Shown here one piece after another: positions 16,101 through 64,000 of a stretch of 64,000 nt of DNA. The notes under the pieces were generated by a model. The model searched no databases and was not told the origin of the DNA. It saw only the letters and a list, made by a program, of their open reading frames with translations. Both the position numbers and the translations under genes were made by a program. This DNA is from Tubulanus polymorphus (lineage: Eukaryota > Nemertea > Palaeonemertea > Tubulaniformes > Tubulanidae). Each line of letters opens with the position of its first letter. The stretch's first letter is position 1. Location of the stretch: NCBI RefSeq assembly GCF_964204645.1, contig NC_134027.1, positions 24,044,485 to 24,108,484 of the forward strand, in the 5' to 3' direction.

Positions 16101-19100
16101 GCTGTCTATTAGAATATGGACTCTAATTGTTTTTAGTCCATAATGGTTAGAATGGTGTTCTCTATAGAAAGGCAATCAAGATGCATGGCAAACCGGACGA
16201 AAATGAATTTCGAACTCGGTAGCTTTTTTATGATCAGTTAAACGAACGTTTTAAAGGACACGAAATTAAACAAGAAGAAGAACGATAAATTGGATTGCTT
16301 TCTTATGGTTGTTGTAAGAATACGCTTGAGAACATTGTGGAACGGTTTTACGAAAAATGTACCTAATGTACACGTGACACTGTGGACACACTGCGCAGAC
16401 TCTACCGAGATTCCCGGACAGCTATTTCCGCCGTGTTTGGGTGCGGGGTTGTCACACTGACGAGTTCTCTGTTGCGTTCCGGTGCCGCAAGACGTACTAC
16501 ACGCCCCATAGGTTGACCATTGACCCCAATGTCCGTCGATCTTAGCTGAATTTAGAAAAAACGAAAGCTCTTACTAGCAACTTTTTGTGTGCAAAATCGT
16601 ACAACATGAAACATGATTGGCGGATCCAGGCTACTTCGCATGACTCACGTGAGGCACTCATAAAAAATCTTAATTTCCCGTTGAATGAAGGCAAAATTCA
16701 AAAAGACTTTGAAAAAGTTTAAAAAGTTTCATGACGAAACTGTCCTGAGTGAATTTCCAAGTACACTAGATTCGATGAGTTTTTGGGTGGGGTCTGAGGG
16801 TGTGCCCTGTCTCCCTAAACATCCATATATTGTAGTCTGGTTTCTTACCAAAAAATAATAATAACATTTAAAGTGACCTATCAATACACTGCGATTTAAG
16901 GATGATTCCGATAATGTGCCTTTTTGAAAAAATGCACTTTTGGTGGTCAAAATTGTTAACCTGGTTTTGCCCCTTGTATTCCAGAAATTATCGTATTTAC
17001 CCTGGCATTCGCTCGATGAACAGTTTTGCGTTTCGACGTCAATTCCTTTATCGTTGGCGTTTGGACATTCGGTTTTCGACGCGCAAAATCTGTTTCTGGT
17101 TTTTACGCACCTATCATTACAGTTGCTCCACAGTGACCACTGCGTAGTGTTTGTTCCGGGAACTATAAAATTGTAGACATTCCCTTCAGCTCAATTGTTA
17201 GTCAAAAGTATCTCTCAGCGAACAGTCATAATAGAAGAAGTCCCGCAATTCGAATTTTTATACGATGAAATTCATCAAAAGAGAAACCACAACGTTTCGG
17301 CTGTTGACTAACAGCCATCATCAGGTGGTATGAACTGGCGGTGCGGACCAATTCTTAACCAACAGAAAGTAAGAGGGACAATCCGTATATCAAGATCATT
17401 CCACCTGATGACGGCAGTTGGCCAACAGCCGAAACGTTGTGGTTTTGTTTTGATAAAATTGAATCGTAACAAATTCGATTTGTGGGACTTTTGGATAGAA
17501 TGTATTATTCGACTACTATCAAACAACGATATCAATCGTTTACCTGTAGGGCATCCGTAAAGTATATTTATACCGGTGATATCAAGTGCACTCGGTCCGT
17601 TTCGTTGTCCGAAGGTTTGACTGCCCTTAAGAGCTACAATCGTCGGTTGTCCGTTTTTCGTGAAGGCCCGACTGCCGTAATGCATGACGCTACCGTAATC
17701 ATAATTCAAACCTTGTTTATCCGTATTATCCCGCCTTTGGTGGAAATTTGAGGCCCTGCCTGACGAAAGTAAGAATGAAAGATATTAACTTCGATAATAT
17801 TCCAGTATTCCATCGACCACCGGTTCAAGCTGGATCGTCAGATGGTCGTTTGAATTCACATATGTAATGTTTGTTTAAGTCGACGGAAAAAACTTTTCCG
17901 GTCTTTTTATAGTTCAGAAAATATGATAAACTGCTTACTAAAAACAGACACTTACAAAGTTGATAATCGGGCTACCTTCGTTATTTTGGTTCACTCCGTT
18001 TTGAACTAGGAATGGTATGAATTCGACTGACCTGTACTTCGATTTCCGATTTTAAAATCAGACCCGGCCCTGTTTCGTTGGCGACAGGTGTGGTAGGTTT
18101 GTAAGGGACACCAATAAATCGAATAAGTAACAGGGACAATCCTTATATCAAGATCAAACATCCAGTCATACACATATATGTTTAAGCGTGTATGGGGGGG
18201 GGGGAACACTTACCATCCAAGATATTTTCAAACATTATCCTAACATATAGATCCCGATCCGGTCTACTGTGCTCGTGATGGAATCCTGAAAATTCAAAGA
18301 AGTTTCATATATAGTAATTTATTTCTAGCGCTGGTCAGTTGAGTAAGTCATGAACATAATATTTGTTCATATAATCATAATAATGATCTTTAAAGTCATA
18401 AAATCAAATGTAAGAAATATCAAGAGTATCTCTTTTATCAAAAAAAAAATGATCATGAAAATAGATACAGATTATACATATGACGAGGGACAAACAAATA
18501 AGAAGTGATAAGAAATTCACAAATTTATTTTGAAACTACAAATTGACTGACCCATACTCGATTTCAACATTCAAAAGAAACAAGTGGAGGATATATTGCC
18601 TGTCAGCGCACATTGTTATAGATATTTGGGTCGTGCAAAACATTTTGTGGGATGTCTCGCACGTTCGTCGGTATACGAAGGCCAAATTACCAGGACATGA
18701 TGCTCATTTTCGACAACATTAGACTGCAGATTTTGTACATGCTTTCGTGAAAGGGTAGGACAGGACGTAACCAATAGTTGATTTACTTGGATTCATTCTA
18801 TCTATACTAACCCAGAGCGTGCATGATCTCGTGTGTGATAACTCCGTGGTGTTCGCAGCCAGTACCAATTGAAATTGGTTGTGCACCCGTTATGGCTTTA
18901 CCGATATAAGAATAACACCTACAATTGAATAAGATGTAAGTACTCCACATTCCGACTACCAAGTGTACCTTCAAATCTACCGGTATACATTTTGAAAAAG
19001 TTACGTTGGTCCTTACCCTTGACCTCGGAAGAATCTAAGCCAGCTCTGGTCACCGGTCTTCTTCAAGCGGAATTTCAAGCACGTTTTACTCTCAAGACCG

Positions 19101-25466: not shown

Positions 25467-25992
25467 TAGATCGTTACTGGACCGTATGAATATTCATTTA
25501 TGTAAATTTTTGTTTGTTTATAAGAAAAGGAATTAAATTTGATTAATTATTGATCGAGAACTGATTTTGTTATAACTCGAGGGCTACTTAGAATTATGGT
25601 AGCGATGAAGGGACGCTTCTTCCCGTGTACACTAGTCGAAATTGACAATTCGGCACCTGTGTGAACAGTTGTTCCGCGCCAGAAATGCTCGTGTGATCGC
25701 GGCTTATATTACGCATATCATAAGTCGGTAATGAAAGGGCTAGTCATACGGAACCACTCATCGGAATGGTTGTTCTAGTGATTTCTGAATTCATCACTTA
25801 CAAACCATTAGGATCGTGCTCTTAGCGATGAATAATAGCTTTTATATGAGAAGAATCAATAGTTTTTAAAGGTAAAACAAATCGGCTGTTCATGTGCGTG
25901 GATTCATTCCACTTTACACTGATATGTTCCAATATTCACGAGGAGAAAGTCATACTGTCTGTCACAGTCGAACACTGTGAATCGTCATCACG
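25467..25992. other. Intergenic region PSME3IP1 to GPCR
   Basis: Holds an end fragment (about 25645-25705) of the element seen at 8889-9195 (CTCGTGTGATCGCGGCTTAT). No gene seen; the rest would carry the GPCR promoter and leader. Confidence 0.45.
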
Positions 25993-26940
25993 ATGAATGC
26001 TACTCACGAGGAGTTCGGTCGACCTCATAGCAGTTACATAGTCGTCATGTCTGTCGCGCACAAATCTGGAATCTACCGTATTGTCTTATCGGTCGTGCTG
26101 ATAATCGCGTTCTTGTTAGGAGCGTTCGGAAATTCGGCTACGTTCCTGATAATGACAAGTCGTAGATTCCGCGGTTTATCTTACGCTAACTATCTGATCG
26201 TTTTATCGATCAGTGATTTTCTGGCTGTCATCAACTGCGCGCTGATGCCCGTCTTACAGTTCGTTCTCTTGCATGTTGACGCCGGTCCGATACTGACGGT
26301 GAATTCTCTGATCGGTTGTCAAATATACGAATCAGTGATGAACGCTATGGGCGCTTTCAGTTCGTGGTTGATAGTAGCCATATCTCTAGAACGTGCGGCA
26401 GTTGTGCTCTTCCCGTTCACATCTCGTTTCATATGTACACCTAGATTCGCTAGATGTGTCATTATTGTCATCTTCACAATAAACGTACTGGCGACAGGAA
26501 TTCGCCCAGCAACGATTATGCAGTTTTCTCACAAATTGACCACGGGCTGCTATTACGAACTTGACGACCAATTCATACTTTTTATCGTATTTGTTGTCTT
26601 TGCTTTTATAATACCTTTAACGCTGATAATAACATCGAATGCTGTCATAATAATTCAGTTATTCAGAGGTTCAAAAATGGTCACGTCCGATCGGAAAACT
26701 ACAAAATCAAAACGTACAACGATAATGCTTGTAACAGTTTCACTAGCATTCGCGATATTCACACTTCCAACCACTGTTACTTCGTTTCTACCGATCTCGA
26801 CGGAACGTAGAGATTTTCTTTTTGACGCATTCACTCATTTTCTATTGTGTAACTATTCGATAAATTTCTACATATACCTTTTATTGGGACGAGAAATTCG
26901 TGAATATTTCTGTACTAAGATTTCCTGCATAACTCGCTAA
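25993..26940 (+). CDS. Intronless rhodopsin-type GPCR, copy 1
   Basis: A 315-residue receptor with seven hydrophobic segments at about 26-54, 63-91, 104-134, 150-170, 193-224, 240-267 and 278-299. Class A marks: GN in TM1 (N47), D75 in TM2, conserved Cys109-Cys186 pair, ERA (E133-R134) in place of DRY, and NFYIY (291-295) in place of NPxxY, then a short helix-8-like REIREYF tail ending in cysteines. N2 is a possible glycosylation site. It is closely related to the receptor at 62295-63257. The general pattern resembles invertebrate peptide-receptor-like orphan GPCRs; no ligand can be named. An AATAAA lies at 27251-27256. Confidence 0.85.
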   Translation: MNATHEEFGRPHSSYIVVMSVAHKSGIYRIVLSVVLIIAFLLGAFGNSATFLIMTSRRFRGLSYANYLIVLSISDFLAVINCALMPVLQFVLLHVDAGPILTVNSLIGCQIYESVMNAMGAFSSWLIVAISLERAAVVLFPFTSRFICTPRFARCVIIVIFTINVLATGIRPATIMQFSHKLTTGCYYELDDQFILFIVFVVFAFIIPLTLIITSNAVIIIQLFRGSKMVTSDRKTTKSKRTTIMLVTVSLAFAIFTLPTTVTSFLPISTERRDFLFDAFTHFLLCNYSINFYIYLLLGREIREYFCTKISCITR

Positions 26941-47100: not shown

Positions 47101-50100
47101 AGGAATGAAATTTTTAGAGATCGGCTCTGGAAGTGGCTGCGTTTCGATTTCTCTTCTGAAGAGACACGAAACGGTAAGAACTTTTTCATAAAAAATGTTT
47201 TGTTGAAAGAACGATGACCACACTCAAACATGGTGAACGGATGGTGAGGGCAAACACTAATTATTTACTCACTCACCAATTTACTCAATTAACCTGTCCT
47301 CCTTGTATATATACCCCTGTTTTTAGTCTATTTCTCACACCTGACGATGATCTCTAGGGTGAGATCGAAACGTCGTGTCTTTTATATATTTTAGATTTAA
47401 TAAATAAATTCTGGTTTTTAATTTCTTTTAATCTGTAAATAGTGGGATTTTATCTTATTGTTTTGTTGAAACTTTGGGTAGTTTTGGTTGATCCATCTTA
47501 CGATATACAACACATGCACACAAAGCTATTCGAAAAATAAAAATCTGAAAAGGGCGCGCTGTAAAACAGGGAAGGGTATGATTCTGTTGGTCTTAATATT
47601 CGGGTAAAGGGTATTTTCCCTGTCAAAAGGGCACCACTGCGAGAATGCCCCTTTCTAATGAATAAGCATCAAAAGATTTGGAGACATTTTAAACCAGGAA
47701 ATATCTCCTTTCACCTGCTGCAGACACTTGGGGAATTTTGTGTCATAACATGGAAAAATCAGGGAAAATTCAGGGAATTTGTAAATGCGTGGAAACAAGA
47801 ATTCATGAATATTCTGTGGAAATTATTAGACAAAAACAAAAAAAAATCGTAATTGTACTGACATATTCAAATATTATTCCATTTTGGGGTTATTTGAATA
47901 TGATAATGATAAAATATGCTTTTATATAGCGCTATTTTCTAAAAGGACTCATTGCGCTTTACATAAAACACTAATTTAACCCCAATAGAAAACACTGTAG
48001 AATTCCTCTAAGAATTAAAAGCATTAGGAACCATGACAGCTTTTAAAAGCAGGAATTGTAGGACTATCCCTTATATGTTTTGTTAAAAGGTTCCCTAAAA
48101 AGGTGCCCTTCAACTAAAAAATATCCGTCTAAATTTCGAATTTTCAGATAAGCGGCGTTGCAGTGGATATGAGCTCGGAAGCATGCTCTCTCACGACGCT
48201 GAATGCCGGCAAACTAGGAGTCTCGAATCGTTTGGAAATACATCGTCACGAGATACTCGCGAACTCGGCTTCGAATGAACTGTTTAAAGGCGTCTCGTTT
48301 GATTTGATAGTCAGCAATCCGCCGTACATACCGACCGCCGATATGCAGCATTTACCGGACGAAATCAGGTTAGGTTCTATTTCTTATTTATTCATTATCA
48401 GGCCTGTAGAATGGTGGGGGGGGGGGTAGTTGGGGTAGGGCTTTGAACTAGTTGCAGGGTCTCTAAAACTCCTTGATTCCTTAATAAAAACACCTTCTAA
48501 ATGGAAATGCTTTTAAGGGTGTTAGAAACTACTTTAATTTGAGCAAAATGTGAGAAACTTCTTTAATGGTTTGCCGCGAAAAGCATTAGCAATTTAAGAG
48601 TTTACTGTAATTAGGATATAGATTAAGTGATGCATATGCTTCCTCGAATTATGAAAATCCTTTGATAATAGTTATAACAGTGGAACCTCGTTACAACAAG
48701 CTCATATACAAGGATTCATCCGATAGTAGAAATTAGAATTTGGTCCCAAGTAAGATAATATGATTAATTTCATCCTGGATATAATGAACAATCGGTTATA
48801 ACGAACATATATTCTAGTCCCATGAAGTTCGCTGTACGGAGGTTCCACTGTATCTAGGCTTGGAGTAATCGATTACTCCAAAATCTCGGAATATCTGATC
48901 TGTACGACCCTGAGTTAGTTCCACTCATTTTTTAATTCGATACAGTTGGGACTTGGATTTATTCTAAACCTAATTCGGCGGTGTTTACAGAATTAGAAAG
49001 TTGAGTATTCTACAAATTGTGTACTTTCAATGCTTTAAAAATCTAACTTAATTGGATTATACACAGATGAACATATTCCATGTCTGTATTTATTAATACA
49101 TCAAAAACAAAAACAATGCCAGTATTCGTATTGATTTTCATTTAATATCAGTCAGTAAAACTTTGTATTTCAATTTTAAACCAACACATCAACAGCTGCT
49201 AGCTTATAGTGCACAGTGTATGAATGAATGCCGTATTTGACGCAAGCAGAGTATGTGTGGCCTGTTGGTCTAGGGGTATGATTCTCGCTTTGGGTGCGAG
49301 AGGTCCCGGGTTCAAATCCCGGACAGGCCCAGAATTATTTTTGCATGATTACTCGCCCGTTTCAATTTTTAAAACGTTGGAAATACTCGATTTTGTAGAA
49401 AACTGCTGAGCAGAGCTTTCGATCCAAATCCATGGATGGTCGTCAACGTACTACGCGTGCACGTGCACACGCAATATATTGTCCCGAACATGAGGGATTT
49501 GGTATCAACCCCCATCCAGTAGAGTGGGGCGGTGGTTCGAGATCTGTTTGGCTTCCTCCTTATTTGTCTTTTGAACCAGTTTGGTTGCCTATAGAACACC
49601 GACACATCTCAAGTGTCCTTCATAAGCAAAAGTCGGCTCGATGATCCCAGTAACTTTTTTTTTTGTCTCTGTTTTAATTTGTTGCCAAGTCAATTAAAGA
49701 ACCCTCTAAATACTTTTCAGTGTTCATCATGGGTATTTAAAAGGGAATACCTAGCACAGAATTGAGAAAATCCTTTTAAGACCTGGAATAGCAATGAAAT
49801 AGCAAAACGAAAATGGATATGGACAAAGTAATGGGGCTGGTTGTTTGTTTATTGATTGAGAAAGTTGTTTGAGTTAAAGATACACGTTTTGAACGCTCGA
49901 ATTGGTTGAATAACTATGAATCTTCATGGAGAACATTGAAAATGATGATAGGACATTGGAAATTGAAGAGGCAATCAAATTAGTGACAGTTTGAATACTC
50001 ATTGGTACTAGATGCAGTTTCATAATTGGTTGAATTTTAAATGGTTTTGTTTTAGTTGTCGATGTGTTTGAAGTAACCCAGTAGCATACGTACAGTCCAA

Positions 50101-51704
50101 ATGTGAGGTTTCGTTGTAATTTGGCAACAATTATAGGGGCAGATTTAAGGGATGGTCTTCCCTTTTCGTCAAGTGAAAGATCTTTTGAATCTGCAAATTT
50201 GACACTCATACATTTGGAAATTGCATATTTTTTCCGACTCATTTCTTCAGAAATATCAAATAATGTGGGTGGAACCTAGCAGCCTATTAAAATGCCTTTT
50301 CATCTTATCGTCTAGACCCCGACCTTCCAAATTTCCTACATCCGCCCCTGGATTATGATATTTCGCATCTACACAGTCAAATATTAGCGACTAATCCAAA
50401 AATCTCGATGGGTTTTTCATGAGAAATGCGCTCTGTGTCTCGGAATGTTTGAAATAGTCAAAAAGATATCTATTAATCTAGCTTCTTTTAGAACGAAATT
50501 TATTCTTGTGCTTAAACAATTAAGCCCTGTAGTAATATCGAATAGATGATGATGCTTTCATATTATTTTTTAGTAAATTTGAAGATAGCGCAGCACTTCA
50601 TGGTGGTTCTGATGGACTCGATGTCGTTAGAAATATCTTGAAATTTTCAAGCGAGCTATTGAAGCCGAATGGGTGAGTAAAAAAGTCAAAAAATTATGCG
50701 GAAAAAATATTTGGGCCTGTCCGGGATTTGAACCCGGGACCTCTCGCACCCAAAGCGAGAATCATACCCCTAGACCAACAGGCCGCACATACTATCTCTA
50801 CGTCGAATACGGCATTCATTCATACACTATGTAAAGCTACCAGCTGTTAATGTAATGGCTGGGATATACACTGTGCCGATGCATTGTAATATGATAACTG
50901 GCATCGCGATGAATAGATAAGATAATAGCGTACACCACAGTCTGACGTTGAGAATAGATTTAAACTTAGAACCTGCTATTATGAAATTATGATGATTTAG
51001 AATGAAATTTATTACTCAAGAATAAAAGATAATAGAAATGACATTTCGAACTTTCTCTAGAGTGGTCAGAATAGTAATACCTGACGATGGTTTGATGAGT
51101 CTGAAACGCTGCGCGGTTGTGTCTTTTATTTTTGATACCCGAGTAATATACTTTTGTTTTAAATCGTATGAATTTGTATACAGCATGTTTTAAAATTAAG
51201 ATTGCCGAAATTGAGGTCATCAATTGATACAGATGATAAGATACTTCAATAAATTGTTTAAAAAGTTGATTATCTTAATTTTAACGTACACATTGTATAC
51301 TGATAGGCATGTATGAAGTAGGAGATGCAAAATGTTATTTCACAAGAACAGAAAGAGTTGCTGATTATTCCGATAATAACTTTGATTTGATTAAGAATGA
51401 ATCATGAAGGAACAATTTTTTGAACAATGCTTTTGAATGTTTTCACAATTTTCGAGTTGATTAGTCAAATACTCATTAATTTCAATAGCTTTTATCAATT
51501 ACGAACATCTTCGATTGCTTGATGATTAAGTACTCATCAATAAACCACGGATGGGAGTGTAATTTTTCGAACTGATATTTAAGGGTGTTATGGATGGAGT
51601 TGGACAGGACTCACCCGAGTCAAATACAGCACGTTCTGAGGCAGTTAAAACTTGACGGTGAATTTGGCGACTTACGAACGGAAATTGACTTCATGAAATG
51701 GTAA
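44141..51704 (+). CDS. HEMK1: HEMK1 release-factor glutamine methyltransferase
   Basis: N5-glutamine methyltransferase of the HemK/PrmC family, which methylates the GGQ glutamine of mitochondrial release factors. Exons: 44141-44377, 45702-45784, 45911-46004, 47063-47173, 48148-48368, 50574-50672, 51584-51704 (966 nt, 321 residues plus TAA). The N-terminus is basic and suits mitochondrial import. Landmarks: [13 protein letters not shown] (family substrate-side motif), [16 protein letters not shown] motif [11 protein letters not shown] (155-164), and the catalytic NPPY in [11 protein letters not shown] (232-235). The C-terminus ends ...RTEIDFMKW, without the usual GRxRF end; it may be diverged or continue in an unrecognised exon (AAATG|GTAATT could be a donor). 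The introns carry a fold-back element, nested MITEs, a hammerhead-like motif and two tRNA-Pro genes. Confidence 0.92.
44747..45170. mobile_element. 424 bp fold-back element
   Basis: Two arms of about 207 bp (44747-44954 and 44965-45170) are almost exact inverse copies around a 10 bp loop. The element begins CCACAGGGGTTTGGCGATGG and ends with the complement. ATTCTT occurs directly on both sides (44741-44746, 45171-45176) and looks like a target-site duplication. It sits in HEMK1 intron 1. Confidence 0.9.
46555..46880 (+). mobile_element. tRNA-like non-autonomous element, full copy
   Basis: 326 bp flanked by GTGTATTAAT on both sides (46545-46554, 46881-46890), or TGTATTAAT if the ends are CATCC...GATG. 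Near its right end it has GTGGGTTCGAATCCC (B-box match) enclosed by the complementary pair GTCAAGGG / CCCTTGAC. It shares both ends with the 97 bp element at 10106-10202. SINE or MULE-like; the class is not certain. Confidence 0.75.
46881..46913. repeat. 33 bp AT-rich palindrome
   Basis: GTGTATTAATGTAATT, one central base, then its reverse complement. It overlaps the right target-site duplication of the preceding element. Confidence 0.75.
47337..47378 (+). ncRNA. Hammerhead ribozyme-like motif, third copy
   Basis: ACAC (stem I), CTGACGA (CUGANGA), stem II GATCTC/GAGATC with loop TAGGGT, GAAAC, GTC (canonical NUH triplet), GTGT closing stem I. Same 42-nt length as the pair in the astacin intron but different stem sequences, so the pairing has been kept by covariation. 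Followed by a TTTTATATATTTTAG tail. Confidence 0.55.
49259..49330 (+). tRNA. tRNA-Pro (UGG)
   Basis: 72 nt folding as a standard cloverleaf: acceptor GGCCTGT/ACAGGCC, D arm with TCTAGGGGTA, anticodon stem CTCGC/GCGAG with loop TTTGGGT (anticodon TGG at 49291-49293), T arm CCGGG TTCAAAT CCCGG, discriminator C. No encoded CCA. A TTTTT terminator follows at 49338-49342. It lies in HEMK1 intron 5. Confidence 0.97.
50713..50784 (-). tRNA. tRNA-Pro (UGG), inverted second copy
   Basis: The same 72-nt tRNA sequence as at 49259-49330 on the opposite strand, with a T6 terminator (50702-50707 on the plus strand read in reverse). It lies in HEMK1 intron 6. About 65 bp of 5' flank is also conserved between copies (for example GTGTATGAATGAATGCCGTA). 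Confidence 0.97.
51081..51123 (+). ncRNA. Degenerate hammerhead-like motif
   Basis: CTGACGA, a poorly paired stem II, then GAAAC, GCTGCGCG, GTT, GTGTC. Here a loop sits between GAAAC and GTT, so a small stem III could close in cis. The same TCTTTTAT-type tail as the third copy follows. Weak. Confidence 0.3.
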
Positions 51705-62294: not shown

Positions 62295-63257
62295 CTACCC
62301 GTATTTCACCAAATTTCTACAGCGTGTTTTCGCGCAGAAATATTCGCGAATTTCTCGTCCCAGCAAAAGATACACGTAGAAATTCACGACATAGTTAAAC
62401 ATCAGGGAATGAGTAAACATGTCTAAAATGAACTCCAGATTCGCCGTCGAATTCGGCAGAAACGCCGCGAAAGACGACGGAAACGTGAATATCGCGAACA
62501 CGATCGAAACCGTCACGAGCATCACCGTCGTGCGTTTCGATTTCGTCGTTTTGCGATCGCACGCGACCATTTTCGAACCGGTGAACAACCGAGCGATTAT
62601 AACCGAATTCGACGTCATTATCAAAACTAACGGCACGATGTAAACGTACGCGACGTACGATATATAATATACCGATTCGTCGTAGACCTGGTAGTAACAT
62701 CCGAAAAACTGGTCGGAAAACTTCACCGTCAATCCCGGGTAACCGCCGATCGCAAACGCGTTGAATACGAAAATACAAACGACGGCGCATCGGGCGAAAC
62801 GCGGCGTGCATAGCAGACGCGACGCGAACGGGAAGAGCACGACCGCCGCGCGTTCTAGCGATATCGCTACCAACAACCACGAACTGCACGCGCTCATCGA
62901 CGCCACGAGAAACTCGTTGATCGCGCAACCGATCGGCGAGTTGATCGCGAAATAACGCGCGTCGCTCAGACGCACGATCGCGAACTGTAAAACGGGCATC
63001 AGCGTTGAATTGAGGCAGACGACGAAATCGCTCACCGACAACGCGATCAAATAGTTGGCGTAGGACAAACGCCGGAATCGCCGGCTGATCATGATCAGGA
63101 CGGTCGCCGAATTGCCGAACGCTCCCAACAGGAACACGATCGTCAGGACGACCAATAACGTCGTGCGGTAGACGACCGATTTGTTATTCAACGACAAAAG
63201 ACCCGTGTAGTTGTAAGGCCTGATAACGAAAATGGGCGTTACGTCGGTAGAATTCAT
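62295..63257 (-). CDS. Intronless rhodopsin-type GPCR, copy 2
   Basis: 320 residues, single exon, clearly paralogous to the receptor at 25993-26940. Long identical runs include LLGAFGNSAT, SYANYLI, LMPVLQF, AISLERAAVVLFPF, CTPRFARC, DRKTTKSKRTT and YLLLGREIREYFC. It has three N-terminal glycosylation sequons (N2, N16, N25), the Cys111-Cys187 pair, an ERA (E135-R136) DRY variant and NFYVY replacing NPxxY. It is noticeably richer in CG-ending codons than copy 1. It lies on the same strand as the NUAK exons and upstream of them, so if NUAK continues beyond the window this receptor is nested in a NUAK intron. The ligand is unknown. Confidence 0.87.
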   Translation of the reverse strand: MNSTDVTPIFVIRPYNYTGLLSLNNKSVVYRTTLLVVLTIVFLLGAFGNSATVLIMISRRFRRLSYANYLIALSVSDFVVCLNSTLMPVLQFAIVRLSDARYFAINSPIGCAINEFLVASMSACSSWLLVAISLERAAVVLFPFASRLLCTPRFARCAVVCIFVFNAFAIGGYPGLTVKFSDQFFGCYYQVYDESVYYISYVAYVYIVPLVLIMTSNSVIIARLFTGSKMVACDRKTTKSKRTTVMLVTVSIVFAIFTFPSSFAAFLPNSTANLEFILDMFTHSLMFNYVVNFYVYLLLGREIREYFCAKTRCRNLVKYG

Positions 63258-64000
63258 GATGGTTTCAACATCTGGCGTTCGGACTGACTGACTCCCGACT
63301 CATATCATCAGCTTAGTTTGCAAATGAATGGACACATTCACATTTCAAATGAAGTCTAATTCGTTCATCGTTTTTTAGAAATGAAACTATTGTTGACAGC
63401 GTATTATATCAATTCTTGGCAATTTACTGCGATTTGCGAAAATATATTCAGTAAATTGAAATAGCTGTACCCGATCGAATTAAGTGAGAATTGAATTAGC
63501 GATTTCTATGGACGAATTAAGTGTGAATTGAATTAGCGGAAACCTCCACTGAACGGGTTACACAAACATAAGTTCTATAGATAAAGCAAGTATGAAAGCA
63601 AATGAAGAACAGCTCAATTCCTTTATGTTCAACAGGGTGAGCACTTTGCACCTGTTTACGAATTCCATGATTCTTTCATGTCATGACACAGAATTCCCCG
63701 AGTAATTCTGCAGCGGGTGAATGCAGAAATTCCTCGGTTTACACTGTAACGATCTATCAATTTTTCATGGCAATAGCACATCCAAATTCCACGATTTTTC
63801 CAGGTTTTTTTTCAAAATCTCTCAAATTCCCTTTTCTAAATTTTTATTAAGTCCGTGAGTTTGTCCAGGTCAGTGGCCACCCTGTTCATATCAGCAACTT
63901 CAGCCAAGCCCTGACATAGTTCATTACAATGTCTGTTACAAAAAGGCTGGCCGACATCCTCCCCGGCAGGGATTCAACCTGATGGCATTGCTACACTCAG
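63258..64000. other. Upstream region of GPCR copy 2 to window end
   Basis: No exon recognised. The last 60 bases (from about 63940) carry the CCCGGCAGGGATTCAACCTG block of the B-box-like repeat family found in the BOP1 introns. Confidence 0.45.

What the first reader, a model, noticed from the sequence alone, without database searches (positions are those of the whole stretch)
17287..17442. Loopless hammerhead ribozyme-like motifs, an inverted pair
Seen: two 42-nt motifs on opposite strands (17287-17328 minus, 17401-17442 plus), each with CTGATGA, a stem II, GAAAC, GTT and a CCAC/GTGG stem I, in the order of a type I hammerhead. Stem III lacks a loop; the ACGT joining GAAA to the cleavage triplet is self-complementary, so two copies could form a shared stem III. 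Known: Penelope-like elements and retrozymes of animals carry minimal hammerheads. Inference: these are end fragments of such elements, here arranged so one transcript could contain both a motif and its antisense.
Basis: partly seen in the sequence, partly recalled or inferred. Interest (0 to 1): 0.75.

Follow-up and report, generated by a model that had tools for sequence, protein, structure and literature searches.

The report
Penelope retroelement hammerhead ribozyme fossils
Two mirror-image copies of a small self-cutting RNA motif are the remains of one Penelope-like retrotransposon insertion, a kind already known in animals and present here in thousands of copies; the one less familiar detail is that the motif sits right at the point where the element's own transcript appears to start.

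Summary
In detail: two hammerhead-type motifs, minus 17287-17328 and plus 17401-17442, lie in a 92-nt inverted repeat. A covariance model built only from other families of this genome finds both (E 6e-13 and 4e-6) and a third, unreported copy at 47333-47383. Stems I and II covary across five families. The motif lies downstream of a YVDD reverse transcriptase and a GIY-YIG endonuclease, so these are Penelope-like elements (PLEs). It is common: 4,253 pattern matches in 268 Mb, about one per 64 kb. The inverted pair is the PLE head-to-head arrangement (10 of 10 close inverted pairs; about 300 genome-wide), best read as priming of both target strands. Qualifications: a conserved extra nucleotide lies between CUGANGA and stem II; the right motif is decayed; a transcript of the pair would fold into a long hairpin burying both motifs. 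New detail: a TATA-like box exactly 29 nt upstream of a TCA initiator in four families puts the ribozyme at the transcript's 5' end, and insertion ends cluster there, not at the cleavage site.

The parts
17228..17333 (-). left arm: 5'-truncated PLE pseudo-LTR (HHR-like motif followed by 3' tail reading leftward), F1 family
   Evidence: 85% to F1 arm positions 121-230; 91% to closest copy
17287..17328 (-). minimal hammerhead motif, intact: CCAC-CUGAUGA-U-GGCUGUU/AACAGCC-GAAACGUU-GUGG; predicted cleavage between 17291 and 17290 on the minus strand
   Evidence: covariance model from other families E 6.4e-13
17334..17395 (.). filler between the arms; 17367-17398 is a fragment of another dispersed repeat also present at 18125-18156
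17396..17521 (+). right arm: second PLE pseudo-LTR, with the optional tail extension and an internal deletion
   Evidence: 79% to F1 arm 121-220; 85% match over 17424-17521 elsewhere; alignment
17401..17442 (+). minimal hammerhead motif, decayed: C in place of the conserved U after CUGAUGA and an A.A mismatch in stem II; predicted cleavage between 17438 and 17439
   Evidence: E 4.2e-6
47306..47313 (+). TATATATA, 29 nt upstream of the TCA of TCACAC (putative core promoter of the F3-family PLE)
   Evidence: same spacing in three other families
47333..47383 (+). third PLE hammerhead motif in the window (F3 family), not in the finding; followed by the PLE tail ending about 47459 (GTGGGATTTTATCTTATT)
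   Evidence: E 5.3e-15; sequence

Best explanation
The inverted pair is one old, ORF-less Penelope-like insertion: two pseudo-LTRs joined head to head, tails outward. The element's transcript starts at a TATA-initiator promoter a few nucleotides before the hammerhead, so each RNA begins with the ribozyme. On insertion, both target strands are cut and each primes reverse transcription from the RNA's tail; the two cDNAs run toward each other, stop at or near the RNA's 5' end (just before stem I), and are joined by microhomology or filler, leaving a hammerhead on the inner side of each arm. Shown: motif, covariation, RT and endonuclease, head-to-head bias, TATA spacing, clustering of 5' ends. Inferred: transcription start, two-strand priming here, ribozyme activity. 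The copies in the window are decayed and probably inert.
For: RT and GIY-YIG upstream of the motif. Ten of ten inverted pairs under 1 kb are minus-then-plus; head-to-head pattern 241+255 matches against 1 and 0 in reversed controls at gaps 0-30 and 64+67 against 0 at 30-60, while a tail-to-tail pattern gave 38 places, mostly without the motif. 17 of 44 truncated F1 arm ends fall at positions 120-123, 2 near the cleavage site. TATA-like box 29 nt before TCA in F1, F2, F3 and F5; 2,364 matches against 42 in the control. Left-right arm identity of 75% is about what two copies each 79-85% like the family would give. Literature: a purified PLE protein cuts and extends both strands (PMC11167929); head-to-head pLTRs with TATA and Inr in rotifer Penelope (PMC3846280).
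Against: No RNA or 5'-end data. Target-site duplications of the window insertion were not resolved. The loci were chosen by similarity to a query holding the motif, so arms ending near it are over-sampled. Self-priming on an antisense template (proposed in PMC3846280) also gives head-to-head pairs. Many TATA matches are copies of the same few families, and some are overlapping counts of one TA run.
Confidence: 0.75

Rival explanations
1. Two independent 5'-truncated PLE insertions landed close together in opposite orientation.
For: Different decay of the two arms (85% and 79% to the family) and 62 nt of foreign filler between them, partly another repeat.
Against: Minus-then-plus order in 10 of 10 close inverted pairs and about 300 head-to-head junctions genome-wide; filler also occurs in other pairs.
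Confidence: 0.12
2. The head-to-head form arises by fold-back self-priming of one cDNA or on an antisense template, rather than by priming from both target strands.
For: Palindromic junctions and extra motif fragments at junctions; proposed for rotifer Penelope (PMC3846280).
Against: Simple fold-back predicts matching truncation points on both arms; arms often end at different points. A PLE protein extends both target strands in vitro (PMC11167929).
Confidence: 0.3
3. The conserved motif is not a hammerhead but a plain hairpin (stem I extended by GAUG/CGUU, then stem II), for example a protein-binding site for the RT.
For: This is the predicted minimum-energy fold of single motifs, -17.7 against -15.5 kcal/mol for the hammerhead helices; an extra nucleotide precedes stem II in every family.
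Against: As tested, the inner helix of the alternative paired in only 28.9% of cells and had no two-sided change (the brackets given there were one column off the fold, and by inspection the F2 family has an A.G mismatch in it). Across families position 7 is a variable position, as in hammerheads. A PLE hammerhead was shown to cleave and to depend on C3 and G8 (PMC11167929).
Confidence: 0.15
4. Non-autonomous retrozyme of the animal type.
For: Type I hammerhead, short repeats, no ORF in the window pair.
Against: The same family has RT and endonuclease; no stem III loop; not in head-to-tail arrays of about 300 bp, except short tandem copies.
Confidence: 0.03

Closest known systems
Poseidon PLE of Anolis carolinensis (PAc) and its hammerhead (PMC11167929)
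   Same: [quoted passage not shown] optional 30-40 nt tail; both strands cut and extended in vitro.
   Different: In PAc the ORF starts at stem II; in F1, F2, F4 and F5 here the ATG at that place runs into an early stop (sequence). PAc elements are described as tandem; here head-to-head ends are prominent.
Penelope families of the rotifer Adineta vaga (PMC3846280)
   Same: Inverted 5' pLTR head to head, palindromes at the junction, 31-bp tail, TATATATA 20 bp before an Inr-like TCACT.
   Different: No hammerhead is mentioned in that paper; here the motif lies directly after a TATA-Inr pair of nearly the same spacing.
Minimal PLE and Terminon hammerheads (Cervera and de la Pena 2014, not held; reviewed in PMC6155905, PMC7229834)
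   Same: Type I, minimal, lacking helix III; over 6000 minimal or canonical motifs in the coral Acropora.
   Different: Whether those also carry the extra nucleotide before stem II could not be checked in the held papers.

Membership tests
Penelope-like element | telomerase-like RT with YVDD | tested here: met
   RYVDD in loci of the family; RVT_1 E 0.0034, below the Pfam cut-off; 150 places, frames to 841 aa. Not in the window copy itself.
Penelope-like element | C-terminal GIY-YIG endonuclease | tested here: met
   PF01541 25.6 bits over cut-off 22.6 in L016
Penelope-like element | pLTRs in tandem or inverted head-to-head order with optional tail | tested here: met
Hammerhead ribozyme, type I | core CUGANGA ... 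GAAA ... UH in type I order | tested here: met
   the core was fixed by the search pattern except N7
Hammerhead ribozyme, type I | stem II directly after A9 (10.1-11.1 pair) | tested here: not met
   one unpaired nucleotide, U in 18 of 19 sequences, precedes stem II
Hammerhead ribozyme, type I | helices I and II kept by compensatory change | tested here: met
   11 of 12 pairs with changes on both sides; 0 of 500 shuffles reach the score
Hammerhead ribozyme, type I | stem III closed by a loop | tested here: not met
   ACGU only; self-complementary, so available only between two copies
Hammerhead ribozyme, type I | self-cleavage | not testable with these tools
   needs in vitro transcription
Rfam RF00163 Hammerhead_1 | score above gathering threshold | tested here: inconclusive
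   no match, but controls did not ring either

The most novel reading that the evidence does not exclude
In these PLEs the hammerhead is the first structure of the promoter-started transcript, and genomic 5' ends show that insertions are copied mainly from uncleaved RNA by priming at both ends, so the ribozyme does not define the template for insertion and may instead act on read-through (multimeric) RNA, where two copies can share stem III.
Probability: 0.5. Interest if true: 0.5.

Novelty: new member of a known kind. Interest (0 to 1): 0.35.

Why it matters
Hammerheads in Penelope-like elements are known but what they do is not. This genome offers several hundred junctions and several families with a fixed promoter-ribozyme distance, so the questions of whether cleaved or uncleaved RNA is copied, and whether both target strands are primed, become testable by comparing insertion ends with RNA ends.

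Tried and rejected
Rfam hammerhead models: no match even at E 10, and controls silent, so uninformative; the sub-threshold MIR1428 and mir-552 matches are the inverted-repeat hairpin. The 32-bp direct repeat 17367-17398 / 18125-18156 was considered as a target-site duplication and rejected: it is the end of a dispersed repeat whose other part is present only at the right copy. A 6-bp ATAGAA on both sides was dropped because the right one lies inside the tail. GAUG/CGUU alternative fold: no covariation seen (tested one column off register). Plasmid search: nothing. First Pfam and NCBIfam scans of PLE frames gave nothing at strict limits.

Full report
What is there. The two motifs are real and lie in opposite arms of an imperfect inverted repeat (17256-17347 and 17382-17473, 75% over 92 nt). 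Each has the order of a type I hammerhead: CCAC, CUGAUGA, stem II, GAAACGUU, GUGG. The minus copy is intact, with a 7-bp stem II; the plus copy has one mismatch in stem II and C for U just before it.

Is it more than chance? CTGATGA-N{4,30}-GAAAC is found three times in the window against 0.31 expected. In the genome (267.8 Mb) CTGANGA-N{10,32}-GAAACGTY has 4,253 matches against 47 for the reversed pattern. They fall into at least five families that differ in position 7 and in stem II. On 19 sequences, 11 of 12 pairs of stems I and II have changes on both sides and 80.3% of cells pair, against 64.0% for shuffles and at most 50.4% for slid structures. A covariance model from eleven sequences of the other families, with the window's family left out, finds the two window motifs at E 6.4e-13 and 4.2e-6, and a third at 47333-47383 plus (E 5.3e-15). 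At about one exact match per 64 kb, such motifs are ordinary in this genome.

What it belongs to. Copies of the family continue upstream into a reading frame with RYVDD and then a GIY-YIG domain (PF01541, 25.6 bits, over the cut-off), the motif coming about 500 nt after the YIGET signature. The RT fragment matches 150 places with frames up to 841 aa, many of equal score, so some families look young. About 70-80 nt after the motif most families end in a shared GTGGGATT-like tail, and F1 has an optional extension of about 32 nt. These are the marks of endonuclease-bearing Penelope-like elements (PMC3846280, PMC11167929).

Why inverted. Among 99 consecutive matches on one contig, ten inverted pairs lie within 1 kb and all are minus-then-plus, that is with the 5' sides facing and tails outward. 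Genome-wide the head-to-head pattern has 241+255 matches at gaps 0-30 and 64+67 at 30-60, with controls of at most 1; most pairs are counted once on each strand, so this is roughly 300 pairs. A tail-to-tail pattern gave 38 places, mostly without the motif. Head-to-head pLTRs are described for rotifer Penelope, and a purified PLE protein cuts and extends both strands of its target. Priming from both ends is the simplest reading; fold-back is the main rival.

Where the copies end. In 27 F1 insertions, 17 of 44 truncated arm ends fall at arm positions 120-123, the TCA just before stem I, and 2 near the cleavage site at 163|164. The choice of loci favours arms that hold the motif, so this is indicative. 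In the head-to-head junctions of all families, at least one arm reaches the full leader in 40 of 63. At the same point there is a promoter-like arrangement: a TATA-like box begins exactly 29 nt before the TCA in F1 (TTTATATG), F2 (TATATATA), F3 (TATATATA, in the window at 47306) and F5 (TATAAATA); the looser pattern has 2,364 matches against 42, with some overlapping counts. I infer that transcripts start there, with the ribozyme first, and that copies are made mostly from uncleaved RNA. This agrees with the finding that hammerhead mutants of PAc still insert in vitro.

What the window pair can do. A transcript of the whole pair is predicted to fold into one hairpin of -130.7 kcal/mol, shuffles averaging -57.4, in which both motifs are paired with each other's complement. 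A single motif prefers a fold that closes the core. So cleavage from this locus is unlikely; in living elements a second copy in tandem could supply stem III, as for newt and axolotl hammerheads. This is inference.

Verdict. Observation confirmed, interpretation supported, kind already known. The added points are the third copy, the extra nucleotide conserved across families, the strict head-to-head order, and the promoter-like signal directly before the ribozyme.

Noticed in passing
window 47333-47383 (+), with TATATATA at 47306: A third PLE hammerhead motif of a different family (F3), with its promoter-like upstream region and tail to about 47459; no inverted partner nearby.
   Followed up: yes
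window 49259-49330 (+) and 50713-50784 (-): Two tRNA-Pro (TGG) genes in opposite orientation with the same covariance score, about 1.4 kb apart.
   Followed up: no
window 18032-18158 and 17367-17398: A short dispersed repeat with dozens of copies at 73-89% identity; its last 32 nt also occur as filler between the two PLE arms.
   Followed up: partly
window 25981-26937 (+) and 62298-63299 (-): Two rhodopsin-family GPCR reading frames (PF00001); 40543-41295 matches DUF4674.
   Followed up: no
L016:2-1277 (+): Next to the PLE tail in L016, frames on the other strand look like a LINE-type reverse transcriptase C-terminus (YADYTIILAESKEQL).
   Followed up: no
G000, junctions listed: Many head-to-head junctions carry extra short pieces of the motif, as if the polymerase had jumped or folded back at the stem II hairpin.
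   Followed up: partly
loops of stem II, alignment A1 columns 24-25: AG in the loop of stem II is nearly invariant across families although the stem itself changes.
   Followed up: no
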